Assembly: GCA_022448265.1 (NCBI GenBank)
Contig: JAKVCC010000007.1
Coordinates: 1-64,000, forward strand
DNA length: 64,000 nucleotides
From: Pirellulales bacterium
GTDB lineage: Bacteria > Planctomycetota > Planctomycetia > Pirellulales > Lacipirellulaceae
Reading direction: 5' to 3'
Shown here: piece after piece, positions 1-26,489 of the stretch
How positions within the stretch are numbered: position 1 is the first letter of the stretch
How the letters are laid out: every line of letters begins with the position of its first letter
Position numbers and translations under genes: made by a program
Notes under the pieces: generated by a model
Databases searched by the model: none
What the model saw: only the letters and a program-made list of their open reading frames with translations
What the model was told of the DNA's origin: nothing

Positions 1-361
1 CCACCGTCACCTTGTGCAGCAATTACACAAAGCATCGGCGGCTTTTTTGAATCTTCGCGGTAGTTGTAGGCTGCATTAGCGTTTCTCCATGTGACCTGAG
101 ATCGGAACTGCCCCAAGTGTATATAAGCGCCTGGGGTGGTGCAAAGGTTTTACGTACAGAAAGCCTGCAACGGCACGCGCCAACCACGCTTTTTGCCGAG
201 AAAACGGCCCTGGGTTGGCATTTCATCGCAACGTACAGAAGCAAGTGTGGTTTCGGCCATAACCCGCGATGATTCCGGCGGACCGTACAAAATGCTAAAA
301 TCGCCGTCCGAACGGTTATTGATGCCAAAATCGCCACGACGTGGCTGGCTAAGGACAAACA
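1..361. other. no gene recognised at window start
   Basis: Short overlapping ORFs exist on both strands, but none has a recognisable family motif and none is long. The stretch lies directly before a truncated ytoQ start and may hold its promoter or the flank of the tRNA-Gln element. Confidence 0.4.
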
Positions 362-12112: not shown

Positions 12113-12793
12113 TCACTCCCTCGTTTCTAGCCGGCCGGCATCCAGCCGTTCCCGGCGCTGCATGCGGGCAGCCTGAACCTCACTATGCGTTACCACAACC
12201 ATCATAGATCGCTGCTCTATCTGCAACTCTATCAAAAGTGAAATGATCTCGGTGGCAGTTGCTGCATCGAGATTACCGGTGGGCTCATCTGCGAGCAATA
12301 ATGCGGGCTGCCGCACCAAAGCCCGTGCGATGGCTGCCCGCTGTTTTTCTCCTCCAGAAAGCTGCGACGGCCGGTGCAGGCGCCTATCGGCCAATCCAAC
12401 CCGCTGGATAAGACTTTCCGCATAGGCAATTGCGTCGGCATCCGCCTTGCCGTCCGCAAGAAACGGCACCAACACGTTTTCCAAAACTGTGCATTGGGGC
12501 AGAAGGTGATGATCCTGAAACACGAAACCGATATACCGATTTCGGAACGCTGCCAAGGCTGGCTCCGACAACTGAAAGGGGTCGACTTCGCCCAGCGCAA
12601 CGCTGCCGCTGGTCGGCGTATCGAGAGTGCCCAGGATTGCCAGTAACGTGCTCTTCCCCGATCCGCTCGGGCCCACCACAGCAACATTCTCACCCGGCTC
12701 GAGCGTAAACGAAACATCAACCAGGATTTCGAGCGGATGGTCCGTCCCTGAGTGGTAGGTTTTCGAAAGGTGCGCAGCAATTAACGAATTCAT
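12113..12793 (-). CDS. ABC transporter ATP-binding protein, LolD/MacB-like
   Basis: A 226-residue ATPase of the LolD/FtsE/MacB class, which powers lipoprotein release or peptide/antibiotic export. It has Walker A GPSGSGKST, a Q-loop in FVFQDHHLLPQ, signature LSGGEKQR, Walker B LLLADEPTGNLD and the switch His in VVVTHS. The HHLLPQCTVLENV segment is characteristic of this class. No permease gene (LolC/E or MacB type) is adjacent, so the partner must be encoded elsewhere. I choose the ATG at 12793 (MNSLIAAHLSKTY); 12829 is also in frame. Confidence 0.9.
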   Translation of the reverse strand: MNSLIAAHLSKTYHSGTDHPLEILVDVSFTLEPGENVAVVGPSGSGKSTLLAILGTLDTPTSGSVALGEVDPFQLSEPALAAFRNRYIGFVFQDHHLLPQCTVLENVLVPFLADGKADADAIAYAESLIQRVGLADRRLHRPSQLSGGEKQRAAIARALVRQPALLLADEPTGNLDAATATEIISLLIELQIEQRSMMVVVTHSEVQAARMQRRERLDAGRLETRE

Positions 12794-12856
12794 AGGCACC
12801 ATTGTGACAAGGCCACGTCGCATCGCCAAGCAGAAACACTCTACGCCTCGGGCTCC

Positions 12857-13804
12857 TCACCCATTTTTTGCCTCGAGACTCTCCCAGCCATTCAGCAATC
12901 CCAGCGAGGCGATGCCATAAAATGAGTACTCCACATCGACGGCATTGTCCCAGCAGGCCGCCGAGAACCCCCCTGTTGGCTGCTGCAAGGTTCGCAAATA
13001 TCCAAGTACGGCCTGTGGATCCACACACCCACCGGCACCAACATCCTGCAAGGTTTGCAATCCGGTGTACGTGCTGAGCAAGTCGGCAATGGGAATCTGG
13101 GTATTCGCCCTCAGGCCTCCTTCGTCTGTGAAATTACCGACGAGATAATCGGCCGTGCGGCTCTGAAGCTGGGAGGTAATACGAGACGGCTCGAGAATTC
13201 GCAGTCCGCCAATTGCCGCGGCGGTGGGGTTAGTGCCGCTACGGCGCATCACGCCGATCTCCACGAACCCGCCATCCTCGCGCTGTTGCCCCAATAAAAA
13301 GTTGGCGGCCCGCTCGGCCTCCGGCAGCGGCAGCTCCAACAGCTCGTAGGCAATTGCCGTCAAGAAAGTCTGGTAAGTGCTGCTAGCGTGACCATCGGCG
13401 GATTTGGCATAGCCGCCATCGGGCCTACGCAATTGTTCCAGGACTGCGACCACCGAATGGGGCCAGTCACCGTCGCCGAATACGGTCTCGGCCATCCATG
13501 TTTCCAGCAGCCGCCCGGCCAATACGAGTGAAATAAGATCGATCACGCTCGCGCGACCGAGCATCTGCTGACGGAGATACCCTGCCGCCAGCTCCGCCCG
13601 CGAGCGATCTTCGTCGCCTAGCACGGCCAAGCCGCGCAAAGCAAATGCCGTGTAGTAGAGATCGCTTGCTTCGGTGCGTCCACAAAAGCCGCCATCCGGA
13701 CGTTGCTGCGACCAGAAAAATCTGCTCTGGAGGTCCCGTTCCGACTCGGTGAGTTGCTCAAGACCCGCACCCAATCGCTGGGTCAGCCCCACGAGATAAG
13801 ACAA
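12857..13804 (-). CDS. prenyltransferase/squalene-oxidase-repeat protein, protein prenyltransferase beta-like
   Basis: A chain of alpha-alpha repeats with QW-like signatures (QQRPDGGF, LRRPDGGYA, QQREDGGF, QQPTGGFSA) that resembles the beta subunit of eukaryotic Rab geranylgeranyl/farnesyl transferases more than terpene cyclases. In those enzymes zinc is held by an Asp-x-Cys pair and a later His. In my hand alignment the Asp is kept but the Cys is Leu (PIADLLSTYTGL), and the His position is Tyr (VDVEYSFYGIASLGLL), so the zinc site looks lost. The open frame extends to 13930, inside the thioesterase gene. I favour a TTG at 13804 or GTG at 13792 as start; this is uncertain. Function unknown. 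Confidence 0.8.
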   Translation of the reverse strand: MSYLVGLTQRLGAGLEQLTESERDLQSRFFWSQQRPDGGFCGRTEASDLYYTAFALRGLAVLGDEDRSRAELAAGYLRQQMLGRASVIDLISLVLAGRLLETWMAETVFGDGDWPHSVVAVLEQLRRPDGGYAKSADGHASSTYQTFLTAIAYELLELPLPEAERAANFLLGQQREDGGFVEIGVMRRSGTNPTAAAIGGLRILEPSRITSQLQSRTADYLVGNFTDEGGLRANTQIPIADLLSTYTGLQTLQDVGAGGCVDPQAVLGYLRTLQQPTGGFSAACWDNAVDVEYSFYGIASLGLLNGWESLEAKNG

Positions 13805-13836: not shown

Positions 13837-14256
13837 CTAAGCAAGGAACGGTTGCAACTTGCTCACCATGGATTCGGGAATAGGAACCGAAACGAGCGGC
13901 TCGCCCGGTTCGATACGACAGCAAACGCACGTGATCTGCCCCGTCGCCACTTCGCGCCCCGCGTGAGAAAACTCAAACCCATATGTCAGACTCTTGCCAC
14001 CGATGCGCATCAAGCGAAGCGCGACATCGAGTATCTCTTCGCAACGGGCCGGCGACTTAAACTCACAGCTCGCGGCAACACGGGGAAAACTCAGCCTGTC
14101 GCCGGGAACGAGCGAATGCACACTGAAGCCAAGCGAGCGAACAAACTCGTGCTCCACCGACTCCATGTAGCGGAACAGCGACCCGAAGTGCATGATGCCG
14201 GCCATGTCCGTATCGTGGAACTCGACCAGTCGCGTTGCGCGGAATGAGTCGGCCAT
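13837..14256 (-). CDS. acyl-CoA thioesterase, YbgC/4-hydroxybenzoyl-CoA type
   Basis: A 139-residue hotdog-fold thioesterase. VEFHDTDMAGIMHFGSLFRYME carries the typical catalytic Asp (T-D-x-x-G) of the YbgC/4HBT class, followed by SFPRVAASCEFKSPARCEE. It probably hydrolyses short or aromatic acyl-CoA esters in the cytoplasm. It lies upstream of the prenyltransferase-like gene with a small gap or overlap, suggesting co-transcription. The substrate cannot be told from the sequence. Confidence 0.88.
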   Translation of the reverse strand: MADSFRATRLVEFHDTDMAGIMHFGSLFRYMESVEHEFVRSLGFSVHSLVPGDRLSFPRVAASCEFKSPARCEEILDVALRLMRIGGKSLTYGFEFSHAGREVATGQITCVCCRIEPGEPLVSVPIPESMVSKLQPFLA

Positions 14257-14299
14257 TAGAGTCAGCCATTTAGGTCAGAGAAAATTCCGACCCGGTGAT

Positions 14300-14542
14300 T
14301 TAGCTCCCCTTGTAAGGCAACAAAGCCATGAAGCGGGCTCGTTTGATGGCCTTGGAAACGGCATGCTGACTAGCCGCCTGGCAACCTGTCTTGCGACGAC
14401 CAACAATTTTACCATGCCGATTGGTCAACTTGCTGAGCAAGTCGAGATCTTTGTAATCCACAAACATGGGCCGTGGACGGACGCCATCGACGCACACGGG
14501 ATCTTGCTTGGCAATCTTAGGGTTGTTATTGCGCTTGGGCAT
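14300..14542 (-). CDS. rpsR: 30S ribosomal protein S18
   Basis: About 80 residues with the S18 core: FVDYKDLDLLSKLTNRHGKI, GRRKTGCQAASQHAV, and the basic C-terminal helix KAIKRARFMALLPY. S18 binds the platform of the small subunit together with S6. Most bacteria have rpsF-(ssb)-rpsR-rplI; here rpsR stands alone, next to a thioesterase gene. An alternative ATG lies four codons upstream at 14554; I prefer MPKRNNN at 14542. Confidence 0.95.
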   Translation of the reverse strand: MPKRNNNPKIAKQDPVCVDGVRPRPMFVDYKDLDLLSKLTNRHGKIVGRRKTGCQAASQHAVSKAIKRARFMALLPYKGS

Positions 14543-14554
14543 ATTCAAATTCAA

Positions 14555-15332
14555 ACTGGGTTTCGTGGGAAGTCAAAGCCGGACAGGGGGCACGTGTTGG
14601 AAGTGCACCTAGCCATGAGGAAAGGACCCTACCAGCAAGCGTCTATTTTAGCGAGTCTCCGCCGAGATACAAGGCACCCTCAGGGATACGAACAGGTCGA
14701 TTTTGTGCTATTAACCGCGGCGCGGCCAATGGACACGTGCCGATGGCAACTGGCTGCCTCCCGCAAAACGGATGGGAACGGTAGCTCATTCACGGCGCAA
14801 AGATCAACGAGATTCCGAGCAATGCCTCATGGGCAAACAGGCCCACTACTATGAAAGATCCCACTTTGTCCAGAAAAAATCGGCTTGGTTTTGATTCCCA
14901 GCGGCCGACCGACAGAAGTGGTGCCAACGTCGAAGCGACCTCAGGTATCCTGGAATTTATTACTAGCGGGACCTGTGCACCTGTAATCCAAGTCCACCTC
15001 AGGACGTTGATCTCGACGTCTGCGACTACCACACGTCGGCTTCAGTAATTTCAGTGTCGTCGCCACAAAGAAATTTGACATCCCCGCCTGCCCATTCGCT
15101 GTTGCGGGCCCTGGCCAGGATGAGTTCTTGATTAACATGCCATTTTCTCAACGAGTTCGCTTAGCCAAGACTCTTGTGTTTTGTTGGCCGGCAGCAGGTC
15201 GCATTTGAACTTCACGACCATGCAGGGCAGTTTGTTGCAACCGCACGATACTGGAGATCGAGGCCCGTTGGTGCTACAGGGGTGCCTACGATGCACAAAA
15301 GTCGTGGCAGGCCCAAGAATTTGGTGAGCTCT
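14555..15332. other. gene-poor stretch between rpsR and a glycosyltransferase
   Basis: No supported gene. On the minus strand near 15026-15160 a roughly 40-codon frame reads smoothly (it contains LILARARNSEWAGGDVKFL), but I recognise no family and it is interrupted upstream by a stop. It could be a gene relic. Confidence 0.35.
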
Positions 15333-16637
15333 TTAGGGAGACTCCGGTGGGTTCAAGAGCTCGAGATAAAGGGATCGAGTCTGCTCAGCCATGGCGCCGG
15401 CGTGGTAGCGCGTCTGCACGGCTTGCTGACCAGCCAGACCAAGCGCTGTAGCACGGGGCAGGTCGCCGAGAAGTTCGGCAAGCTTTTCCGCCAGGTCGTC
15501 GGCCTGCTGTGGCAGGCAAAGCAGCCCTCCTCCGGTATCGGCGATCAGCTCCGGATAGGTCCCATGTGCAGGCACCACGGCCGGCACCGCATTGGCCCAC
15601 GCTTCTAAAAGTGGCAAGCCCTTGCTCTCGCGGTAGACCGACGGCGTGCTAAATACGTCTAACGATTGAAGAAATTGAATCTTTCCCTGCCGATCAATCT
15701 CTCCGTGATAATAAAACTTTCCGGCCAGAGGCCCTTGCGCTACGCGGCCTTGCAATTCCCTGAGATAACCTCGATCACCAGCCCCCAAATAGCCGGCCGC
15801 ATGGAGTTCGAACCGCGGCAGGTCTTTTCGCGACGCGAGCAACTCGCACGCCGCCACCAAAAGATGCAATCCCTTGTCTTCACAAATGCGCGCCAAATAA
15901 CCAATGCGGAGCGGCTCACCGTCGACCGGTTTGTTTCGGGCGCGGTGACCATCAAGGTGCAGGCCATGGGGGATGACATGGATCCGCCGACGATCGACAC
16001 TGAGATAGTCGGCCATACGATCGGCGTAGTAATGATTGAGCGCTGTGAACGCATGCGCGTCGTCCGCGCGCTCGACAAGCAGCCGCTTGGCATACTCGTA
16101 ATGGGGTGGTCGGAGCTTTTCCAGAAAAATATCTTCGCCCGAAAGGGAGCAAATCACGGGCGGTCCACACCGCTGCGCAATTATGCGGGCAAGACCCAAC
16201 ATCATGGCGTTCGAAAGATGCACGACATCGGGGCGCACCTCGTCCAGCAGCCAATCAACCAGTTTTTCGAGCTCTTTACGCTGGTTTCCAACTTCGCCAC
16301 GGAGCATCGAAACGGTCAAGTCGCCCAGTCGGGCCGGATCGACACTGGCACCAAAGCCGCCGACGAGACGGAGCAGGGCAGGGCGATCCCAAAGCTTGTC
16401 GAGCCAGGCCGGCGTGTGGCGAAACAGGCGAGACTTCTGCTGCAAATAGGCATTGATCGCGCCAAAGAACACCCGCTGTTCGCTGACGTCGCGTTCGTCG
16501 GTGCGGATGGGCGTGTAGATCGGCACCAAGACAACATCTTCGCCTAGTCCCAGGAGGGCCGCGGCCAAAGTATTGTCGTGCAAGCAGCTACCGCAGTACA
16601 TACCCGCGGCACCAGAAGCCAGGTAGGCGATTTTCAT
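15333..16637 (-). CDS. glycosyltransferase family 4 (GT-B fold)
   Basis: From the ATG at 16637 the protein starts MKIAYLASGAAGMYCGS, the usual GT4 N-terminal strand with a glycine loop. The C-terminal half has RIGYLARICEDKGLHLL and then VFSTPSVYRESKGLPLLEAWANAVP, the E-x7-E donor-sugar motif of GT4 enzymes. A 34-residue upstream extension in the same frame looks non-coding. Likely role: transfer of a nucleotide-activated sugar onto a surface glycan or lipid. Donor and acceptor are unknown, and no other cell-envelope gene adjoins it. Confidence 0.88.
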   Translation of the reverse strand: MKIAYLASGAAGMYCGSCLHDNTLAAALLGLGEDVVLVPIYTPIRTDERDVSEQRVFFGAINAYLQQKSRLFRHTPAWLDKLWDRPALLRLVGGFGASVDPARLGDLTVSMLRGEVGNQRKELEKLVDWLLDEVRPDVVHLSNAMMLGLARIIAQRCGPPVICSLSGEDIFLEKLRPPHYEYAKRLLVERADDAHAFTALNHYYADRMADYLSVDRRRIHVIPHGLHLDGHRARNKPVDGEPLRIGYLARICEDKGLHLLVAACELLASRKDLPRFELHAAGYLGAGDRGYLRELQGRVAQGPLAGKFYYHGEIDRQGKIQFLQSLDVFSTPSVYRESKGLPLLEAWANAVPAVVPAHGTYPELIADTGGGLLCLPQQADDLAEKLAELLGDLPRATALGLAGQQAVQTRYHAGAMAEQTRSLYLELLNPPESP

Positions 16638-16766
16638 AAAGCGATAAGCGATAGGCAGGAAGCGGAACGGCAGGTAATGGGTACTGAAGTGCCCAGCCAC
16701 ATTACCACGCAGTGCATCATACACCGTCAGCCGCGACACGTTTCCCTACAACGCGCGAAACGCGCA

Positions 16767-18338
16767 TCAATCGGCGAAGAATTTTTTCAAGGTTTCTGGT
16801 TTAGGCGGACGTGTCAAAAGGGAAGCAGCGACCATCGCAATTAGCGAAGCTAGAAAAATTGCGGCAACCGGCATGATTTCGTACGCTTCGCCGCCAAGAT
16901 TGAGTTTGAGCGTGTAGGTGCGGATGGGGCCCGGATTGCCGACCTTGATCGCCTGGCCAATGGCATCGCTGAAGAAATAGCCCCAGGTGGCCACCGTGGC
17001 GAGCACGGCTCCGTAGGCGCCCCACTTGGTAAGCCGTTTCCAATACAGCGCGGCGAACACCAGAGGAAACAGCGACGAAAATCCGCTAAAGCACCAGACT
17101 CCCAGCGCAAATACGCTCGGAGGCTTAAGCAACCCCAGCAAGTAGGTAAGCGTTACCACCGCAATGATAAAGCCGCGTGCCAACCTGATTTGGTTGGCAT
17201 CGCTGGCATCACGCTGAAAGTAGTGGCCCACGATATCTTTAGTAAACATCGTGCCCAAACAAAGAAACTGGCTGTCGAGCGACGACATAATCGCCGCCAG
17301 GATTCCCACGGCAAGAAATCCACCGAGCAGCGTGCCTGCTTGCGTCTTCACCAAAAATGGCAAGATTGCATTGGGATTGGCCGGCAACGGCGGCCTAGCT
17401 GGAACCAATTCGGTGGTTGCCCAGACACCGATCAGCACACAGGGAACCCAAACGATCATGATAAAAATGGGGTGTGCAACAACCGGTAGCTTAAAACTTT
17501 TGGCACTTTTCGCCGTCAGCCAATGTTGAAACAAGTGGGGAAACATGCCCACCGACAATGGCACCAGCAGGTAGGTCAAAAACTTTGTCTTCGACATGTC
17601 AGCGCGGGTGGCCCGGTTCTCAGGAATTGCTTCGCCCAGCACGCGCAGATTTTCCCAAAGGCTCTCCTGGCCCCCTAGCTTGTTGGCAATGACACCAAAA
17701 GTCGCGATCCCCAAAACCATGAAGACAAGTGTCTGAAACGCGTTGGCCCATGCTGTACCTCGCATGCCGCCGAAGAAAACATAGCAAAGCACGACCAGGC
17801 AGATCAGTAGCGAGCCCCATTGAGTCGGCAATCCACCCGAAGTGGCGATATTGTCCGTGGGGAACAAGTTCGGAAAAGCCCCTGCGGTCATCGTTTGCAT
17901 GACCACGCCGCTGGAGATCACGCCGATCAGCAGATAGGGGATGACCAAGCCGACGAGAATGGGAAACAGCAACAACCCGATTCGGTCACTGTCGAGCCGG
18001 TCCCGGAAAAATTGAATTTGCGTCTTGTAACCGTAGCGTTTTCCGAAGCCCCACAGCTTAACCCCGAGCAAGAAAAAACAGAGGGAATGAATTATTCCGC
18101 TGCTGGAGGCTAGCATCCCATAAACGCCAATACCCTCCTTGAACGCTTCGCCCGTTGAGCCCACCAACGCGAACGCTGTCATAGTGGTACCAAAAACGGA
18201 CATCAACAGCAAAAACGGGCCAATCGAGTGACTGGCGACCATGTAGTCGCTAGAGGTACCGCGAAACAGGCGACTAGCAAATAGCCCCAACAGTAGCAAT
18301 AGGCCAAGGTAGCCGAGGATGATCCAGAACTGTATCAC
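16767..18338 (-). CDS. sodium:solute symporter family protein
   Basis: A 523-residue polytopic membrane protein with roughly 13 hydrophobic segments, typical of the SSS/SLC5 family, which imports solutes with sodium. Recognisable pieces are the first helix (FWIILGYLGLLLLLG), the GTTMTAFALVGSTGEAF region, GGMRGTAWANAFQT, and ILAAIMSSLDSQFLCLGT, where SSLDSQ is the conserved sodium-site helix. It overlaps the upstream DUF3311 gene by four bases, a common pairing for this family. The substrate is not evident. Confidence 0.92.
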   Translation of the reverse strand: MIQFWIILGYLGLLLLLGLFASRLFRGTSSDYMVASHSIGPFLLLMSVFGTTMTAFALVGSTGEAFKEGIGVYGMLASSSGIIHSLCFFLLGVKLWGFGKRYGYKTQIQFFRDRLDSDRIGLLLFPILVGLVIPYLLIGVISSGVVMQTMTAGAFPNLFPTDNIATSGGLPTQWGSLLICLVVLCYVFFGGMRGTAWANAFQTLVFMVLGIATFGVIANKLGGQESLWENLRVLGEAIPENRATRADMSKTKFLTYLLVPLSVGMFPHLFQHWLTAKSAKSFKLPVVAHPIFIMIVWVPCVLIGVWATTELVPARPPLPANPNAILPFLVKTQAGTLLGGFLAVGILAAIMSSLDSQFLCLGTMFTKDIVGHYFQRDASDANQIRLARGFIIAVVTLTYLLGLLKPPSVFALGVWCFSGFSSLFPLVFAALYWKRLTKWGAYGAVLATVATWGYFFSDAIGQAIKVGNPGPIRTYTLKLNLGGEAYEIMPVAAIFLASLIAMVAASLLTRPPKPETLKKFFAD

Positions 18339-18664: not shown

Positions 18665-19921
18665 CTAGCTGGGCATTTCGTCCGCCGCGCTGTGGCGGGC
18701 CTCGAGCCACGGTAACAGATCATCAAAAATGCGTCCTTGGCAACCGTCGAAGATGCGCCCAATAAGCAGATCGACCAATTCCTCGCGGTGCTCAGGGTAT
18801 TGCTCGATAAACTTCCCGACCCGGAACTCGCCCGAGTAAAAAGCCCCGACTAGCTGGCGCAGGAGTCCTGTTTGACGGGTAAATTTGGGCAGCCAGCGTC
18901 CCAAGACCGCAGCCGAAACGTCACCGCTGCGCAGGGCGTCGACTACGCAGTCGGCGGCCAACTCTGCGGACTTCAAGGCGAAGTAGACTCCGGTCGAATA
19001 GATCGGATCGATGAATCCCCAAGCATCACCGACCAACACCCAGCCATCGCCAGCAGAGCGGCTGGTTGTGTAGGAAAACTCCTTGGCAACCTGAAGCGAG
19101 TCGACGGGCTGGGCGTCCTTCAGCCAGTTCTTGAGCGTCGCACAATTTTCCAGCTCTTCGGCAAACACCTGATCCGGAGCGCCGCGACCCTGGAGAAGAT
19201 ATTCACTATCGCCCACCACGCCGACACTCACCACGCTATTACTCTGAGGAATGTGCCAAAACCAGGACTTCTGCTCCGCCGTATGCAGAATCGCCGTTTT
19301 AACGCCGCCGCCTTGCTCGTCTCGATATCCCCCGCGAAAATGTCCCCAGATCGCCGCCTTGCGAAAATCCGGGTTCACGGTGCGCAGGCCAAGCTTCGAG
19401 GCGAGCAGCGTTTGCTGCCCAGTCGCATCGACGACAATCTGGGCGGCAATTTGTCGCGTATCGCCGGCGGCCGACTTCAACCTAACACCGATCGCCCGGT
19501 CACCATCCAAAATCACATCGACAACGCGCGTGGCATCGCAGCAGGTGGCACCCTTGGCGGCCGCATTGTCAAAAAGCATCTGGTCAAACTCAGCCCGGTC
19601 CACGTGCCAAGTTTGGCTCGACGCGCGCGGGTCGTGCGAGCGAAAAAAAAACGGTGCGGATTCTCTGCCCGTGTGATTGACGAATTGGACACCCACTTTT
19701 TTTGCGTAGGAGCTTTTGCGCAGCGTCTCGAGCACGCCTAGACGCTCAAACACCCAATACGTTTCGGGCATCAGCGATTCGCCGACATGAGGTCGCGGAA
19801 AAGCATCGCGTTCGACCAACAACGTTTGCAAGCCCGCCTCGGCCACGAGGGCTGCCACAGTCGACCCTGCCGGACCGCCTCCCATGACCACGCAGTCGTA
19901 CGTCTCAAGAATATCGATCAT
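18665..19921 (-). CDS. FAD-dependent oxidoreductase, flavin halogenase / geranylgeranyl-reductase-like
   Basis: 418 residues with an N-terminal FAD-binding motif (VVMGGGPAGS, residues 12-20), then PHVGESLMPETYW, a late FAD contact in GDAWGFIDPIYSTGV, and the WxWxIP motif (WFWHIP, residues 220-225) that marks the flavin-dependent halogenase branch. A lysine pair at 74-75 sits where halogenases have the catalytic lysine in my rough alignment. It could be a halogenase, an epoxidase-like monooxygenase or a prenyl reductase. Its position at the downstream end of the terpenoid locus suggests modification of that product, but this is inference. The C-terminal 60 residues are not typical of geranylgeranyl reductases. 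Confidence 0.85.
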   Translation of the reverse strand: MIDILETYDCVVMGGGPAGSTVAALVAEAGLQTLLVERDAFPRPHVGESLMPETYWVFERLGVLETLRKSSYAKKVGVQFVNHTGRESAPFFFRSHDPRASSQTWHVDRAEFDQMLFDNAAAKGATCCDATRVVDVILDGDRAIGVRLKSAAGDTRQIAAQIVVDATGQQTLLASKLGLRTVNPDFRKAAIWGHFRGGYRDEQGGGVKTAILHTAEQKSWFWHIPQSNSVVSVGVVGDSEYLLQGRGAPDQVFAEELENCATLKNWLKDAQPVDSLQVAKEFSYTTSRSAGDGWVLVGDAWGFIDPIYSTGVYFALKSAELAADCVVDALRSGDVSAAVLGRWLPKFTRQTGLLRQLVGAFYSGEFRVGKFIEQYPEHREELVDLLIGRIFDGCQGRIFDDLLPWLEARHSAADEMPS

Positions 19922-20038: not shown

Positions 20039-20563
20039 TCATGCCTTCACAATCTCCAGTAATTCCACGGCCGGTTTGCCCGCCACCAAAATCCGCGCAG
20101 TGCGTCCATAGATATGGGCGTCTTCTTCCAAGCGCAGATGGGTGCGCAATTCGGATCCCGGTGCCACGCGGAACAACTGAACCAATTCGACTTCCCGCAT
20201 CAGGTGGTGGCGTATCATAATCCGTCCCAACGGCAAGGCCTGCGATTCGATTTCCAGTCGCACGACCTCCGGCAGGCCCTTCAAGTCAATCCGCATAATC
20301 CCAAACTGCACCACGTGGTGATCGCGTTGGAGGGCCAGCACGATCTTGCGGGCATAAGAATCGCCGTCTCGGTGTTCGGCCAACACGTGGACGTCCACCA
20401 TACTATTGTGCCACGCTTCGACAGTGACCGTCATATGGTCGTGGTGCGCCAGCAGCGCCTGGTAGGCCTCCGGCAAATCCGTCGCCTCGATGGCATGAAA
20501 CCGTCCCAACTCGGCAAGCGAGCTGTAGAACAGATTAGTGATCTGAACAATGGTAGAAGACAT
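20039..20563 (-). CDS. chorismate-lyase-like (UbiC/UTRA fold) protein
   Basis: A 174-residue protein whose second half resembles the chorismate pyruvate-lyase fold. ALPLGRIMIRH matches the PLG segment of UbiC, and YGRTARILVAGKPAVELLEIV matches the end of that fold, including a late Glu. UbiC releases 4-hydroxybenzoate from chorismate for quinone synthesis; whether this protein does so cannot be judged, since the likeness is distant. The related UTRA fold only binds ligands. It lies between the prenyl synthase fusion and the flavoenzyme on the same strand, so an aromatic-prenyl product is conceivable. The start at 20563 (MSSTIVQITNLF) is plausible. Confidence 0.6.
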   Translation of the reverse strand: MSSTIVQITNLFYSSLAELGRFHAIEATDLPEAYQALLAHHDHMTVTVEAWHNSMVDVHVLAEHRDGDSYARKIVLALQRDHHVVQFGIMRIDLKGLPEVVRLEIESQALPLGRIMIRHHLMREVELVQLFRVAPGSELRTHLRLEEDAHIYGRTARILVAGKPAVELLEIVKA

Positions 20564-20676: not shown

Positions 20677-22668
20677 CTATTTTGAGCCTAGCGCCTCGGC
20701 CTGTATCACCGGCGTCACTAGCGCCATTTCTGCTTCTGGCGGCTTATCCAGGACCGTGTCGATCAGGTAGTACAATAAGCGACGCAGGCTTTCCGGTTCT
20801 ATGCCGTCAGCAATCCGCTCGGCTCGTTCCTGGTATTTGTCCACCAAATTGTGGGCCTTGTCGAATACGCCCGCCTCGCGGTAAAGCTGCTCGACTCGGG
20901 CTACGCGTTTGTCGGGTTGCGCTCCGCTACCGACAAGTTGCAGCAGCTCAGCCTGAACTTCCGGAGCGAGAGCTTCCAATGCCAACGCCCACAGCAACGT
21001 GGGGCGACCGCCCAGTGTATCCAGCCCCGCGGACAGCTTGTTGTCTTGGTCACCTTGCCAGTCTTTTAGATCGTTCAATATCTGAAATGCGATGCCCAGG
21101 TGCTTAGAAAATTGCTTCAAGGGCCCTTCGAGTTCGCCCAAAGGCTCGGCGCAACGGATTCCGCATAACAGGGCAGCTTCAAATGCAGGCGCAGTCTTAA
21201 GCGCATAGATCTTGAGTGCATCCAGGGGCTTAAGCTGCTTGTCGCAGCCGTCGCGCCATACAAGCTCCGCCCCTTGGCCTTCGCTCAACCGCAAGTGGGC
21301 GTCGGCCAGCCGGTCGAGAATCTCACCGGCTACTTCAGGACCTAAATTCGCCACATCGCGGCTAACGAGCCGATATCCTAAGCCGATCATATAGTCGCCT
21401 ACGTTAACTGCCGCAGGCACTCCCACCACACGGTGCATGGCTGGCTGGCCATAGCGGAAGTCGTCATCGTCCTCGATATCGTCATGGACCAGCGATGCCT
21501 TGTGAAACGTCTCGATCGAAAGCGCCACACGCCGAACCGCATCGGGCACCTGCTCGAGATGGCGCGCCCCATCGTGGGCCACGCCCTTGCCCCCGGTCAT
21601 CGCATCGTAAGCAGCTAGTGTAATAAATGGCCGTGCATACTTTCCGCCCTGCGCAATAAAGTCGTAAGCCATCTGCTCCGTAGCAGCCACCGGATCACCA
21701 AAAAACGGGGCAGACCTGCTTTCCACCCGGGTCTGGGCCTCCATTTCAGTATCACGGCCGGTCGGCGACGAGTCTCCCGTATGCGCCCCATCTAGGACAA
21801 CCATATCTCTTTCGGCCCCGTTTCTTTCCACCCCATTTACGTTAGCTTCTCTTTGTCGGGGTGCTAACTGGGCCAGATGGTCCGGCTCAAACAGCTGTCG
21901 CGCCAATCGCAATAGGTGCAAGTAGGTTGGCGACCGCTTGCTTGGCGCGTCGCGCCGTACGTGAATCAGCTCGTGCACCCAGTCCTCGTCGACTGAGGTA
22001 TTGCGACAATCGCTCGATAATAGGGGTACCGCCATCGAGGGCACCCCCGCCAGCAGCACTTTGTCGATTGCCTTTTCCAACACATTCAGGCAGGCGACGC
22101 CGATGATGGCATCGACATAGCCGCTGATAATGATCTTCATCACAATCGGCGAGCCCTCGGCAACCAGCACTTTGTAGCCAAGTTCCTCAGCTTGAATGCG
22201 AAAGTCGGCAATGCTGCAAGCGCCACACTTCTTGCAATCCAGCCCAAACTGATCGTAGTCCGCCGGGCACCCCTCTGCATGCTTCAAGCAATGGGGCAAC
22301 AGAAGTAGGCGACGACTCGGTGGTACCGCAGCCACTTGCTCGCGCCAAAACTCCGAAGAAAGCACGACCATCATCCAGCCGAGATACCCTTCTGGCTGCT
22401 TGTGCTCGGTTAGAAGCTCCCGAGCCACAACTTCCAACTCGTCTTTCGAAAATTGCTGGCTGCTATCGATTCGAGCTAAAGCCTGCTGACAAATCTCGCG
22501 CAGACGAATCCGCAAATCAAGCGAGGGGGGTACGTCTTTGAGATGGGCCGTCCGGCGCCGGCGCGGGCCCTTGCGCCGCTGCGGTGCCGCTGCGGCCGGA
22601 GAATCACCAGCGACATGGCCTTCGGCAAGCTCTAAATTTTCTGTAGTCTCCGTAGGTACGCTCGCCAC
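20677..22668 (-). CDS. DUF116-polyprenyl synthase fusion protein
   Basis: 663 residues in two parts. Residues 1-265 have a basic linker (30-40) and then a DUF116 domain with clustered cysteines: C127, C134, C145, C148 and C151 (LDCKKCGACS), plus C193 and C221. Residues about 320-663 are a trans-polyprenyl diphosphate synthase: GGKYARP at 341, first Asp-rich motif HDDIEDDDD at 395-403, and second motif NDLKDW at 532. The residues before the first motif (A391, S392) are small, which in this family usually allows chains longer than C15; this is inference. An upstream gap of 174 bases to the cyclase gene suggests one operon. The fusion is unusual to me. DUF116 has no established function; its cysteines suggest metal or Fe-S binding. 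Confidence 0.88.
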   Translation of the reverse strand: MASVPTETTENLELAEGHVAGDSPAAAAPQRRKGPRRRRTAHLKDVPPSLDLRIRLREICQQALARIDSSQQFSKDELEVVARELLTEHKQPEGYLGWMMVVLSSEFWREQVAAVPPSRRLLLLPHCLKHAEGCPADYDQFGLDCKKCGACSIADFRIQAEELGYKVLVAEGSPIVMKIIISGYVDAIIGVACLNVLEKAIDKVLLAGVPSMAVPLLSSDCRNTSVDEDWVHELIHVRRDAPSKRSPTYLHLLRLARQLFEPDHLAQLAPRQREANVNGVERNGAERDMVVLDGAHTGDSSPTGRDTEMEAQTRVESRSAPFFGDPVAATEQMAYDFIAQGGKYARPFITLAAYDAMTGGKGVAHDGARHLEQVPDAVRRVALSIETFHKASLVHDDIEDDDDFRYGQPAMHRVVGVPAAVNVGDYMIGLGYRLVSRDVANLGPEVAGEILDRLADAHLRLSEGQGAELVWRDGCDKQLKPLDALKIYALKTAPAFEAALLCGIRCAEPLGELEGPLKQFSKHLGIAFQILNDLKDWQGDQDNKLSAGLDTLGGRPTLLWALALEALAPEVQAELLQLVGSGAQPDKRVARVEQLYREAGVFDKAHNLVDKYQERAERIADGIEPESLRRLLYYLIDTVLDKPPEAEMALVTPVIQAEALGSK

Positions 22669-22842: not shown

Positions 22843-24840
22843 TCAAACTCGCGCCGTCGATCCAACCACCGGCCCAACCCGCAGCCCGCCAGCAGCCCCC
22901 TGCGGCGCCACCTCGGCAGCCACCCGGTGCCGAGCCCTGGCCAATGCGCGCGTCACAAAAATCTGCGGGTACAGCCGCTCATAATACCATAATTTTGCAA
23001 AGTAAAAACCGATCGGCGCGGGCTCTTTCCAGCGGTCCTGCTCGACCGCATCCATCAACCAGGAAGCTCCCTGCTCAAAGCTCGCCGCAGCTTCTTGGGA
23101 GCTATCGGCAAAGGGAACTAGGGCCTCTACAGCCAAGGCCGTTTCTTCGACACTGCTCGTCGCGTCACCACAATCGGGCAGCGGCGTCACAGGCCCCCAG
23201 CCGCCATCGGCACACTGGCACTCCACCAACCACTGCAGCCCGCGGCGTGCCATCTTGCTGGCCCCCAATCCCAGCTCGTCACACATGATCAATACCATGG
23301 ACGTCCCATACACGGGATTGGCTTCTTGAGGATTGCGCTCGTTACCAAACCACAAAGGATTCCAATTACCGGCTGCCTCTTGCGCGGCTTCGATGTACTT
23401 GAGGCCTCGGTGAGTGGCAACTTCAATGCGCCCGGCAAGTTCCGCGTTCGAATTTCCCCCTTGCCACATGCTTTTCCACCGACGGAGCGCACGCAACACA
23501 TGCGCGCTAATGTCAACGCTACTGCGGTCAAAGGCCAACCTGCCCCAACCTCGACAGAAAGTCGGCCAACCCCCGTCTTTGTTTTGAAGCTGCAGCAACC
23601 AAAGCACGCCTTCCCGCGCGGCGCGGCGTATTTTGGACCGGCGATCTTGCGTCTTCGGCCCGACCGCTGAGGCCGGCGGATAGCAAGCGGCCAGCGCCAA
23701 CAAGGCTGCCGAGGTGTCGTCCGCATCGGGAACACCGCCGGACCGATCCGTCCAGGCCCAGCCACCAGATACCGCGCCCGTAAACGGGTGAGGATCCCAG
23801 TGTTGGCAGTCGAGCAACCAACGGACAGAATCCCAAAGCTCATTCTGCGAGGCCGGCTCCTGTGCCCTCTCTCCACCCGTGCCCCCCTCTGGATGACCCT
23901 CAAGCGAGGAAAGGGCGAGCGAAGTGTTCCAGGTAGCCAAATCTGAATCGATCGGCCAACTACCATCCGCCCGGACAGAAGACAACAAAAACTCCACACC
24001 GCGACGTACAATTCGGTGTTCCGAAAGTCCGACACTGGCAAGACTCATCACGATAAAACTGGTCAGAGGCGTCGCCTCCAAAAAACCACCACTGGCAGGC
24101 TGTATATCTTCGACAACGGCCAAGCTACGCTTTATCGCCCACCGGCGCAGCTGACGCATGAACGGATTCCGCGGCGGGCCGTGATGAAACCGGGCCTGTC
24201 CGACCGCGACCAGCGCGGGGATCGCATAGCTCACAACCGGCAGATTCAACCAGCGATACAAACTTTGTGGCAGACAAGCCAATTCAAAGGGCAGGGGGGG
24301 AACCCGGTGCCACGGAATCATGTCGGCCAGTGCACAGTTAGCTAAAATAGGCACGGCGAATGTTTTGTCCCCCGCGTAGCGCCGCTTCAGCGCCGCCACA
24401 CCACCTTGCGACTCAACGTATTGCTCTGCCCGCTCGAGCAAACTGGCATACTTGGCCGGCACACCTGTCAGGTGAAATGCCGCTTGCACCAACATGGTGG
24501 TGGCAATGTTGGAAAGACTGCGGTCCGTGTCGCCCCAACCGCCGTCGTCATTTTGTTGCTCGGCAAGCCAGTGCAACGACCGAACAATTTGTTCGCTCAG
24601 ATCGCCTCGAAAAATCTCATCTATATGCGAGGGCTCTTCACCCGGAGTATAGGCGGGCAGCCCCGACTTCATCCCAGCTTGTTCCGCCAACACTAGCGCA
24701 CTGATCGCGGTGGCCGTCGAAAGGGGTGAACTCGAAAGTTCGCCAGTCCAATGTGCGGCCGAGTTGCGTTCGGCCAGCAACTGCTTGTGAGCAGTTTGGT
24801 GAGCGGCAGCTAGCCGATCACGATCCACTTGAAGAGTCAT
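22843..24840 (-). CDS. shc: squalene-hopene cyclase family (class II terpene cyclase)
   Basis: 665 residues, the usual SHC length. The protonating DxDD motif is DADD at 372-375 (GVPDADDTSAALLAL). Several QW repeats are visible: QQNDDGGWG near 96, ADGSW near 291, QLQNKDGGW near 417 and CQCADGGWG near 541. FYFAKLWYYERLYP near 612 matches the conserved C-terminal aromatic segment. Such enzymes cyclise squalene or other linear isoprenoids in the membrane. No squalene-synthesis genes (HpnC/D/E type) are seen, so the substrate may be another polyprene supplied by the adjacent prenyl synthase. The last 30 residues are Ala/Gly-rich and variable. Start at 24840. Confidence 0.9.
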   Translation of the reverse strand: MTLQVDRDRLAAAHQTAHKQLLAERNSAAHWTGELSSSPLSTATAISALVLAEQAGMKSGLPAYTPGEEPSHIDEIFRGDLSEQIVRSLHWLAEQQNDDGGWGDTDRSLSNIATTMLVQAAFHLTGVPAKYASLLERAEQYVESQGGVAALKRRYAGDKTFAVPILANCALADMIPWHRVPPLPFELACLPQSLYRWLNLPVVSYAIPALVAVGQARFHHGPPRNPFMRQLRRWAIKRSLAVVEDIQPASGGFLEATPLTSFIVMSLASVGLSEHRIVRRGVEFLLSSVRADGSWPIDSDLATWNTSLALSSLEGHPEGGTGGERAQEPASQNELWDSVRWLLDCQHWDPHPFTGAVSGGWAWTDRSGGVPDADDTSAALLALAACYPPASAVGPKTQDRRSKIRRAAREGVLWLLQLQNKDGGWPTFCRGWGRLAFDRSSVDISAHVLRALRRWKSMWQGGNSNAELAGRIEVATHRGLKYIEAAQEAAGNWNPLWFGNERNPQEANPVYGTSMVLIMCDELGLGASKMARRGLQWLVECQCADGGWGPVTPLPDCGDATSSVEETALAVEALVPFADSSQEAAASFEQGASWLMDAVEQDRWKEPAPIGFYFAKLWYYERLYPQIFVTRALARARHRVAAEVAPQGAAGGLRVGPVVGSTARV

Positions 24841-25244
24841 ACGAGCCGAGAGGCTCCGGGGTTAGCGGGAAGCCGCCGGAAAATTAAGCCGACGAGCGCC
24901 CAATTCTATTCACGCCGATAGGCGCTGTCGAGGGTGGGCCCCCGGTAGGTCGAGGTTCCGTTTGCCCCCGCACTTGAAAAAAACGCCGGTGCCCAAATCA
25001 GCAATGAAAATTTCAAAAAAATCAGGGGCATTCGGCCTCTGGTCGAGGGTTGGCCTGGCATCGCATCGGCAGGTGGCTCCCTGAGAAAACCAATCCAAAA
25101 TTACCCTACGGCCCCGGAACTGCCACTTTACTACCCCACACACCATGGTTCTGAGACTGGTCCTAGTTTCTTCAACCTGAAGCAGACATAATTGGCACCA
25201 ATCGATTGCTCTGGCCCCTGGTGCCTCCCCGGAACCAATGCCCC
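24841..25244. other. divergent promoter region of the terpenoid locus
   Basis: About 400 bases separate the cyclase (minus) and the radical SAM gene (plus), so both promoters should lie here. Small frames inside it look non-coding. I see no strong operator. Confidence 0.4.
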
Positions 25245-26489
25245 ATGTACCTCCGCTACGCCAAACGGCTGCTGACCGAAACTGACAAGCGCCTGCTTTG
25301 GAAGCTCGCCTATAATTTCGCCTTCAAGGGGATGCGGGCAATTCGGCAGCACAAAAAACGGCTGGCCCGTGGCGACTTTTTTCCACCATTTCTCTACATT
25401 TCGATCATCAACAGTTGCAACCTACGATGTCAGGGATGTTGGGTAGACGTCGCCGCTAAACAAGAAAAAATCGAGGTCGACGCATTATCTCGCGTGATTC
25501 GCGAAGCCAATGAGCAGGGCAATTATTTCTTTGGCATTGTCGGCGGCGAGCCGTTCATGCACGCCGACATCTTAGATCTCTTTCGCCGCCATCCCGACTG
25601 CTACTTCCAGGTTTTCACCAACGGCCATTTTATTACGGACTCGGTTGCCGCTCAGCTCCGCAGTTGTGGCAACGTTACACCGCTCATCAGCGTCGAAGGA
25701 ACTGAGATTGTCAGCGATGAGCGCCGTGGTGGCCAGGAAGTACTAAGCAAAACAATGGAAGGCCTTCACAACTGCACCAGCCACAACCTGATTACCGGTG
25801 TCTGCACAAGCGTTTGCAAAACGAATCTCGACGACCTTGTAAACGAACCTTGGGTCGACCGCCTGATTGAACTGGGCGCGCTGTACATGTGGTATCATAC
25901 CTATCGGCCGATGGGCCCCGAGGCGGCGCCTCAGCTGGCTTTGTCACCAGAGGAACAACTCCGCATTCGCCGTTTTGTCGTCGAGATGCGCACGAAAAAA
26001 CCGATCGGCATCATCGACGCCTATTACGACGCCGACGGCCAGGCACTATGCCCTGCGGCAACCGGCTTCACGCATCACATTTCGCCCTGGGGCGACATCG
26101 AGCCGTGTCCGATCGTGCAATTTGCCGCTGAATCGATCTACGACGACCAGCCCCTGGCCGACACCTTCAATAACTCCCAGTTTCTCACAGATTTTCGCCA
26201 GTTGGCCGCATCGCATACCCGCGGGTGCATCGTCCTGGAGCGGCCTGATCTACTGCACGAACTCACGGTACTACACGGCGCCAAAGACACGACGGCCCGT
26301 AAGCAGGCGTCCGCAGAATTACAATCCATGGCACGACGGCCATCGCAATACAACCCAGCCAGCGAAGTGCCCGAAAAGAGTCTGGCCTACCGTTTTGCCA
26401 AACGGCATTTCTTCTCCGACTTCGGCGCGTACGACGCACCACAAAATCCGCTCGCGCGCAAAAACACTAAAACCAGTTCCAACACCTAA
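25245..26489 (+). CDS. radical SAM enzyme with SPASM-like C-terminus
   Basis: From the ATG at 25245 (MYLRYAKRLL) it has 414 residues. The radical SAM 4Fe-4S site is C58-x3-C62-x2-C65 (SCNLRCQGC), followed by GIVGGEPFMH, the SAM-binding GGEP motif. More cysteines occur in the C-terminal half (ALCPAATGF, DIEPCPIVQF, RGCIVLE), consistent with an auxiliary cluster as in SPASM/Twitch proteins. It is transcribed away from the cyclase. HpnH, which adds adenosine to hopene, is also a radical SAM enzyme, but the sequence around the cysteines here differs from my memory of HpnH (CNLACVGC), so I do not call it HpnH. A role in terpenoid modification is inferred from position. Confidence 0.82.
   Translation: MYLRYAKRLLTETDKRLLWKLAYNFAFKGMRAIRQHKKRLARGDFFPPFLYISIINSCNLRCQGCWVDVAAKQEKIEVDALSRVIREANEQGNYFFGIVGGEPFMHADILDLFRRHPDCYFQVFTNGHFITDSVAAQLRSCGNVTPLISVEGTEIVSDERRGGQEVLSKTMEGLHNCTSHNLITGVCTSVCKTNLDDLVNEPWVDRLIELGALYMWYHTYRPMGPEAAPQLALSPEEQLRIRRFVVEMRTKKPIGIIDAYYDADGQALCPAATGFTHHISPWGDIEPCPIVQFAAESIYDDQPLADTFNNSQFLTDFRQLAASHTRGCIVLERPDLLHELTVLHGAKDTTARKQASAELQSMARRPSQYNPASEVPEKSLAYRFAKRHFFSDFGAYDAPQNPLARKNTKTSSNT

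What the first reader, a model, noticed from the sequence alone, without database searches (positions are those of the whole stretch)
12857..13804. Protein-prenyltransferase-beta-like protein with a lost zinc site
The alpha-alpha repeat protein aligns to Rab geranylgeranyltransferase beta, a eukaryotic signature fold. My hand alignment shows Asp kept, Cys changed to Leu and His changed to Tyr, so the zinc needed for thiolate activation seems absent. It might bind lipids or peptides without transferring prenyl groups, which fits the eukaryote-like traits of planctomycetes.
Basis: partly seen in the sequence, partly recalled or inferred. Interest (0 to 1): 0.5.

Follow-up and report, generated by a model that had tools for sequence, protein, structure and literature searches.

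The report
Zinc-free prenyltransferase-fold protein in terpenoid cluster
A planctomycete gene encodes a protein shaped like the enzymes that attach lipid tails to proteins, but it has neither their zinc site nor the acid motif of terpene cyclases, and it keeps company with a cyclic-terpenoid gene cluster that may not need squalene.

Summary
The gene at 12857-13804 (-, TTG start) encodes a 315-aa alpha-alpha barrel (model pLDDT 96). Structural comparison puts it on RabGGTase beta in linear register (Z 27.7, 268 residues). The zinc ligands Asp238/Cys240/His290 fall on Asp241/Leu243/Tyr293. Leu243 and Tyr293 are invariant in 73 of 73 planctomycete homologues aligned, with no conserved Cys or His column, so the zinc-free state is ancestral within this family.

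Rather than a eukaryote-like trait, the protein is linked to a bacterial terpenoid cluster: a polyprenyl-diphosphate synthase fused to DUF116, a squalene-hopene-cyclase-like enzyme with intact DxDD, and a radical SAM enzyme. Across 146 Pirellulales genomes it tracks that cyclase (74 both, 2 alone, 12 cyclase only, 58 neither; not corrected for ancestry) but not squalene/phytoene synthase; 21 of the 74 have no match to the latter. In the best profile register its DxDD-equivalent is an invariant DxYY.

Best explanation: a zinc-free, prenyl-handling barrel acting with the SHC-like cyclase in a terpenoid pathway that, at least in those 21 genomes, seems squalene-independent, probably through a new Asp/Glu/Tyr site. 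Catalysis, substrate and product are inferred.

The parts
12857..13804 (-). prenyltransferase-fold protein (PT-like), 315 aa, TTG start, alpha-alpha barrel
13070..13084 (-). codons for D241-L-L243-S244-T245, equivalent of the zinc Asp-x-Cys of RabGGTase beta (Cys replaced by invariant Leu)
   Evidence: D241, L243, S244 73/73
12923..12937 (-). codons for D290-V-E292-Y293-S294, equivalent of RabGGTase beta D-P-F289-H290-T; His replaced by invariant Tyr, pocket Phe289 by invariant Glu
   Evidence: D290, E292, Y293 73/73
13649..13663 (-). codons for D48-L-Y50-Y51-T52, position of the class II cyclase DxDD(T) motif in the best profile-profile register; acid pair replaced by invariant Tyr-Tyr
12113..12829 (-). 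LolD/MacB-type ABC ATPase, 27 bp downstream of the PT-like gene, frequent neighbour (34 of 73 loci)
13837..14256 (-). 4HBT (hot-dog) acyl-CoA thioesterase-like protein, 32 bp upstream of the PT-like gene (28 of 73 loci)
15333..16739 (-). GT4-type glycosyltransferase
16767..18338 (-). sodium:solute symporter family protein
18665..19921 (-). FAD-dependent oxidoreductase of the tryptophan-halogenase / geranylgeranyl-reductase type
20039..20563 (-). 174-aa protein without Pfam match; model resembles DUF98, GntR effector (UTRA-type, recalled name) and chorismate lyase folds
20677..22668 (-). DUF116 fused to a polyprenyl-diphosphate synthase (DDIED and NDLKD motifs present)
22843..24840 (-). squalene-hopene-cyclase-like class II terpene cyclase, DADDT motif intact (residue 372)
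25206..26489 (+). radical SAM enzyme (CNLRCQGC), divergently oriented

Best explanation
The protein is a zinc-free, single alpha-alpha-barrel member of the prenyltransferase/terpene-cyclase superfamily. It works in a planctomycete terpenoid pathway, as a dedicated partner of the SHC-like class II cyclase; where no squalene synthase is present that pathway must use another prenyl substrate. SHOWN: predicted fold, absence of the zinc triad, replacement of DxDD in the best profile register, near-invariance of polar residues at or just before the inner-helix starts (R43, D48, Y50, Y51, Y144, D241, S244, D286, D290, E292, Y293, Y296), gene linkage, co-occurrence with the SHC-like gene. INFERRED: the DUF116-fused synthase makes a polyprenyl diphosphate; its chain, possibly on an aromatic head in the window's lineage, is bound in the PT-like barrel, where the D241/D290/E292/Tyr site performs or assists a step (proton transfer, double-bond isomerisation or cyclisation) that the SHC-like enzyme precedes or follows. 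The Asp241-Tyr293 pair probably takes the place of the zinc site, and Glu292 stands where RabGGTase has the pocket residue Phe289.
For: Fold and register. Zinc site absent, replacements invariant: (73/73). DxDD position = DxYY: (best of four registers, E 1.2e-8; next 7.9e-7). Precedent that one barrel can be a class II terpene cyclase: MstE entries and 8paj/8pak in the Foldseek list; passages in PMC12365925 and PMC13290415. Linkage: 30 of 73 PT-containing loci hold the SHC-like, DUF116-PPS or radical SAM gene on the fragment read; in the compact clade of the tree 19 of 19 loci hold DUF116-PPS and 16 of 19 SHC-like, in the other clade 11 of 54 hold one of the three. Co-occurrence in 146 genomes: PT/SHC-like 74/2/12/58 against PT/SQS_PSY 53/23/46/24. 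DxDDT in 28 of 29 SHC-like proteins, the other being a 309-aa fragment. No SQS_PSY match in the own genome.
Against: No assay, product or ligand is known. In 43 of 73 loci no SHC/PPS/rSAM gene lies on the fragment read (fragments are about 5-26 kb and some end at contig ends), and in the 8 loci L089-L096 none was near; whether those genomes carry an SHC-like gene elsewhere was not tested. Co-occurrence is not corrected for shared ancestry. 12 genomes have the SHC-like gene without PT, so PT is not obligatory for it everywhere. The model is a predicted apo monomer and pocket geometry was not measured. The DxDD register is one of several in a repeat protein. Invariant residues could serve binding rather than catalysis. 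53 of 76 PT genomes do have SQS_PSY genes, so squalene independence rests on the 21 that do not, and PMC8303584 (passages) assigns such clusters in Adhaeretor mobilis and others to carotenoid or hopanoid pathways.
Confidence: 0.55

Rival explanations
1. Non-catalytic pseudoenzyme: the barrel only binds or carries the hydrophobic prenyl chain or cyclised product, or scaffolds the SHC-like cyclase, without chemistry of its own.
For: Both catalytic signatures of the superfamily are gone; close co-occurrence with a complete SHC-like cyclase; LolD-type ATPase gene in 34 of 73 loci would suit hand-over to an exporter.
Against: Charged and tyrosine residues at the inner-helix starts (D241, D290, E292, Y50, Y51, Y293, Y296) are 73/73 conserved, more than passive lipid binding would be expected to demand.
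Confidence: 0.27
2. Prenyltransferase in disguise: transfers a prenyl group to a non-thiol acceptor (peptide or small molecule) without zinc.
For: Closest fold is RabGGTase beta; a polyprenyl-diphosphate synthase gene is nearby; residue 236 is Arg in 34 of 73 homologues and could contact a diphosphate.
Against: Arg232 and Lys235 equivalents replaced in the window protein; no PPTA match found; UbiA-type prenyltransferases are present elsewhere in the genome.
Confidence: 0.06
3. Carboxylate metal site: D241, D286, D290 and E292 bind Mg2+/Mn2+/Fe2+ instead of zinc and activate a substrate.
For: Invariant or nearly invariant acids at and beside the former zinc position (residue 286 is Asp or Glu in 73/73).
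Against: Geometry not measured; D241 and E292 lie on different repeats; no metal evidence.
Confidence: 0.05
4. The terpenoid genes are bystanders: the protein serves lipoprotein or cell-envelope traffic with LolD and the thioesterase.
For: In the larger clade 34 of 54 loci hold LolD and 28 the thioesterase, against 11 with SHC-like, DUF116-PPS or radical SAM.
Against: In the compact clade 0 of 19 loci hold TE or LolD while 19 of 19 hold DUF116-PPS; co-occurrence with SHC-like persists when the genes are unlinked.
Confidence: 0.07

Closest known systems
Rab geranylgeranyltransferase beta subunit (and FTase / GGTase-I beta)
   Same: alpha-alpha barrel, linear register over 268 residues, Z 27.7; Asp238 equivalent kept
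   Different: Cys240 and His290 are Leu and Tyr in 73 of 73 homologues; Arg232/Lys235 equivalents replaced in the window protein; Phe289 is Glu; no alpha-subunit match; bacterial terpenoid gene context
Monodomain class II terpene cyclases (MstE; the 342-345-residue proteins 8paj/8pak)
   Same: single barrel of similar size, found by Foldseek; terpenoid context
   Different: DxDD acid motif is DxYY here in the best register; the possible acid is a Glu in the last repeat
Second (DxDD) domain of squalene-hopene cyclases, and drimenyl-diphosphate synthases (7xq4, 8zg5)
   Same: profile similarity, E about 1e-10 to 7e-18; an SHC-like protein is the genomic partner
   Different: stand-alone barrel, no DxDD

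Membership tests
Pfam PF00432 Prenyltrans (alpha-alpha toroid) | profile score above the curated cut-off | tested here: met
   66.4 bits against 26.5 for the window protein; 37 of 37 rows of A1 match at E<=0.001
Protein prenyltransferase beta subunit | alpha-alpha barrel fold superposing in linear register | tested here: met
   Z 27.7, rmsd 2.5, 268 aligned to 1dce_B
Protein prenyltransferase beta subunit | zinc triad Asp-x-Cys ... His | tested here: not met
   D241, L243, Y293; 0 of 73 have Cys or His at the last two; no conserved Cys/His column elsewhere
Protein prenyltransferase beta subunit | Arg232/Lys235-type contacts to the prenyl diphosphate | tested here: not met
   equivalents N234 and P238 in the window protein; but residue 236 is Arg in 34 of 73 homologues
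Protein prenyltransferase beta subunit | alpha subunit (PPTA repeats) in the genome | tested here: inconclusive
   no PF01239 match in a 97%-complete genome, but no control genome passed the cut-off, so the sensitivity of the search is not shown
Protein prenyltransferase beta subunit | prenyl transfer to protein cysteine | not testable with these tools
   needs an assay
Monodomain class II terpene cyclase | single stand-alone barrel | tested here: met
Monodomain class II terpene cyclase | DxDD (general acid) motif | tested here: not met
   aligned stretch in the best register is D48-L-Y50-Y51-T; Y50 and Y51 73/73
Monodomain class II terpene cyclase | protonation-initiated cyclisation of a prenyl chain | not testable with these tools
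   needs an assay
Class II cyclase (SHC-like), for the neighbour at 22843-24840 | SQHop_cyclase domains and DxDD | tested here: met
   NCBIfam hopene_cyclase only 95.7 bits against a cut-off of 431
Hopanoid pathway, for the neighbour at 22843-24840 | squalene supply by an SQS_PSY-type synthase in the same genome | tested here: not met
   no match in own genome (7 of 14 control genomes ring); 21 of 74 genomes with both PT and SHC-like have none, 53 of 74 do

The most novel reading that the evidence does not exclude
Planctomycetota carry an old, squalene-independent polycyclic-prenoid pathway (DUF116-polyprenyl synthase, radical SAM, SHC-like cyclase) whose second barrel, this protein, is a new kind of terpenoid enzyme. 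It has neither PTase zinc nor DxDD, and uses an invariant DxEY/DxYY/D-L-L-S rim to act on the polyprenyl chain, so that 'squalene-hopene cyclase' genes of this type do not mean hopanoids.
Probability: 0.35. Interest if true: 0.78.

Novelty: new variant of a known kind. Interest (0 to 1): 0.52.

Why it matters
Hopanoid synthesis in a planctomycete has been suggested from a squalene-hopene-cyclase gene (PMC7783415 passage), and isoprenoid clusters of Pirellulales isolates have been assigned to carotenoid or hopanoid pathways (PMC8303584 passage). If this SHC-like enzyme and its zinc-free barrel partner act on another substrate, such inferences need correction and an uncharacterised lipid of these bacteria becomes testable. 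It would also show how the barrel fold shared by protein prenyltransferases and terpene cyclases can be refitted with a third kind of active site.

Tried and rejected
Zinc site in another register: rejected, no conserved Cys/His column in 73 sequences. Chance similarity: rejected by Pfam, model and Z. True class II cyclase by DxDD: rejected, DxYY in the best register; an early guess from residue proportions put DxDD opposite repeat 2, and other registers are weaker but not excluded. Archaeal outgroup: the only non-planctomycete locus (L044, Bathyarchaeota) matches in pieces only and gave no zinc-site comparison; a search around it was not accepted. So 'lost' versus 'never had' is undecided. 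The model's coordinates were not among the files of the script box (listing), so no distances were measured.

Literature. Searches: DUF116 (24 papers, 15 listed, off topic by title); planctomycete/SHC/polyprenyl synthase/radical SAM, three of four (2; one of them, PMC8692599, seen in passages: an antiSMASH survey of soil metagenomes; in the passages shown the SHC and polyprenyl-synthase clusters named belong to other phyla); planctomycete with terpene cyclase, squalene-hopene and gene cluster (0); protein prenyltransferase with planctomycete (1, sponge metagenome, listing only); MstE/monodomain (16, 8 listed); planctomycete squalene/hopanoid terms (27, 12 listed); SHC or DUF116 with planctomycete (13, 10 listed); bacterial PTase-beta with zinc ligand (0); RabGGTase zinc residues (1); Pirellula/hopanoid terms (24, 10 listed). 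No listed title or abstract start, and no passage I saw, describes this protein or its cluster; the library is open-licence only, and PMC7306690 on planctomycete triterpenes was not held.

Thresholds and dropped rows. Co-occurrence: PT at least 200 bits (76 of the 98 genomes with a match at E<=0.001; 22 weaker ones dropped) and SHC-like best E below 1e-90 (86 of the 89 at E<=1e-40; G019, G143, G153 dropped). Alignment: of 75 PT rows, two identical over the compared core to others were dropped. Linkage: L033 and L034 (same genomes as L046 and L050) were left out; the four SHC-centred loci L125-L128 hold no PT. Regions were read for 20 of the 65 matching genomes and for 16 further PT places, chosen by me for spread, besides the loci.

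Full report
What is there. The minus-strand ORF 12857-13804 (TTG start) encodes 315 residues. It lies 32 bp after a 4HBT thioesterase-like gene and 27 bp before a LolD/MacB-type ATPase gene. The contig belongs to a 3.64-Mb, 97%-complete genome.

Fold and register. Pfam PF00432 matches at 66.4 bits. Using 37 homologues, AlphaFold2 gave pLDDT 96.1 and pTM 0.93. Foldseek's first eleven hits are RabGGTase or GGTase-III beta chains; single-barrel cyclases, FTase and GGTase-I follow. VIA aligns it to 1dce_B with Z 27.7, 2.5 A over 268 residues, model 17..309 on chain 17..304. The 50 rows shown are all protein prenyltransferases, so that list does not test other families. Sequence profiles alone also propose permuted registers, as expected of repeats; the structural one is linear.

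Zinc site. RabGGTase zinc ligands are Asp238, Cys240 and His290 of beta (PMC9141697 passages). Across 73 distinct homologues from the phylum, D241, L243 and Y293 are 73/73, and no Cys or His column is conserved. The tree has two deep clades joined by a 100/100 branch, and the replacement is fixed in both. The zinc-free state is therefore ancestral within the family; whether an older ancestor had zinc is not decided. Arg232 and Lys235, which contact the diphosphate, correspond to N234 and P238 across a one-residue gap. Against a clean loss, residue 236 is Arg in 34 of 73 homologues, though Gln here. No alpha-subunit match was found in the genome, in a search without a positive control over the cut-off.

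What replaced it. Invariant in 73/73 are Y50, Y51, F54, D241, L243, S244, D290, E292, Y293 and Y296. Nearly so are R43 72/72, Y144 72/73, D48 69/73 and D286 68/73 with Glu in the other five. By the model's helix limits these lie at or just before inner-helix starts, where PTases carry the zinc ligands. E292 takes the place of Phe289, listed among the aromatic residues around the RabGGTase lipid. Comparing the family profile with the second domain of the neighbouring SHC-like protein, the best alignment (E 1.2e-8) puts the cyclase's D-A-D-D-T on D48-L-Y50-Y51-T52; three other registers are weaker. So both known chemistries of this fold, zinc-thiolate and DxDD protonation, appear absent, yet the rim is strictly kept.

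Neighbourhood. Profiles made from the neighbours show two arrangements. In the compact clade of the tree (19 loci) the fullest order is GcvH-like, CobW-type GTPase, small protein, 4Fe-4S protein, radical SAM, DUF116-polyprenyl synthase, PT-like, SHC-like, cysteine desulfurase (this last name by eye, no family scan), with variations; DUF116-PPS is present in 19, SHC-like in 16, radical SAM in 16, TE or LolD in none. In the other clade (54 loci) TE occurs in 28, LolD in 34, and SHC-like, DUF116-PPS or radical SAM in only 11; the window has the full set: radical SAM, SHC-like, DUF116-PPS, chorismate-lyase-fold protein, FAD enzyme, symporter, glycosyltransferase, thioesterase, PT-like, LolD. In sum 30 of 73 loci hold SHC-like, DUF116-PPS or radical SAM genes. 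All 12 loci L097-L108, from other parts of the phylum, do; L089-L096 (8 loci) do not. The PT-like family itself was found in 65 of 294 genomes sampled across the phylum at E<=1e-20. The SHC-like proteins keep DxDDT in 28 of 29, the exception being a fragment.

Co-occurrence. In the same 146 Pirellulales genomes, PT-like and SHC-like are both present in 74, PT alone in 2, SHC-like alone in 12, neither in 58 (Fisher p 7e-26; not corrected for ancestry; thresholds under Tried and rejected). The control is squalene/phytoene synthase: with PT-like 53/23/46/24 (p 0.72), with SHC-like 59/27/40/20 (p 0.86). Twenty-one genomes with both barrels have no SQS_PSY match, including the window's own and the single-contig genomes G025 and G029. 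The own genome's best SQHop_cyclase_C match is this SHC-like gene, 83 bits against 28 for the next. The SHC-like enzyme of these 21 genomes thus probably does not cyclise squalene; for the other 53 the question is open, and PMC8303584 (passages) assigns such clusters to carotenoid or hopanoid routes.

How it probably works. The polyprenyl synthase keeps DDIED and NDLKD motifs. The product length is unknown; small residues before the first motif would allow more than C15 (rule recalled). The PT-like barrel would hold the prenyl chain with its reactive end at the D241/D290/E292/Tyr rim and either do a proton-transfer step or present the chain to the SHC-like cyclase. MstE shows that one barrel can be a class II terpene cyclase (passages). 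In the window's lineage the 174-aa protein models as a DUF98/GntR-effector/chorismate-lyase fold (E 1e-7 to DUF98 2nwi, 1e-3 to chorismate lyase 1fw9), which would fit an aromatic head group; this is a hint only, as better hits are not chorismate lyases.

Verdict. Observation confirmed; zinc-free state ancestral to the family; interpretation shifted from eukaryote-like lipid binder to likely component of a bacterial terpenoid pathway. Membership in protein prenyltransferases fails on two tested features (zinc triad, Arg/Lys contacts), the alpha-subunit test being inconclusive, and membership in DxDD cyclases fails on one. It is a variant of a known superfamily with a new active-site pattern and an unassigned reaction.

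Noticed in passing
window 20039-20563 (-): 174-aa protein without Pfam or NCBIfam match; its model resembles DUF98, GntR effector domains and, more weakly, chorismate lyase, hinting at an aromatic-acid step in the cluster.
   Followed up: partly
window 20677-22668 (-): DUF116 fused to a polyprenyl-diphosphate synthase; 97 of 146 Pirellulales genomes match the query at E<=1e-40, not all over both halves. The DUF116 literature search gave nothing on topic by title.
   Followed up: partly
window 22843-24840 (-), own genome: SHC-like cyclase in a genome with no squalene/phytoene synthase match; 21 of 74 genomes with both barrels share this.
   Followed up: yes
L067-L071, L097, L098, L111: GcvH-like, CobW-type GTPase, small Cys protein, 4Fe-4S protein, radical SAM and (by eye) cysteine desulfurase genes beside the prenoid genes: an Fe-S/radical module of unknown purpose.
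   Followed up: partly
L033, L034, L035, L048, L049, L051, L058 (between GT or contig end and thioesterase): PAS histidine-kinase-like and FixJ-like response-regulator genes (named by eye) inserted in the cluster in relatives; the window has no assigned gene at 14257-15332.
   Followed up: no
L053, L056, L063, L072 downstream of LolD: Large FtsX-type permease (named by eye) near LolD in relatives; none was seen next to LolD in the window.
   Followed up: no
G000:C5 (L002): The only other PF00432 match at E<=0.001 in the genome: a 420-aa frame with DG-type repeats, not examined further.
   Followed up: no
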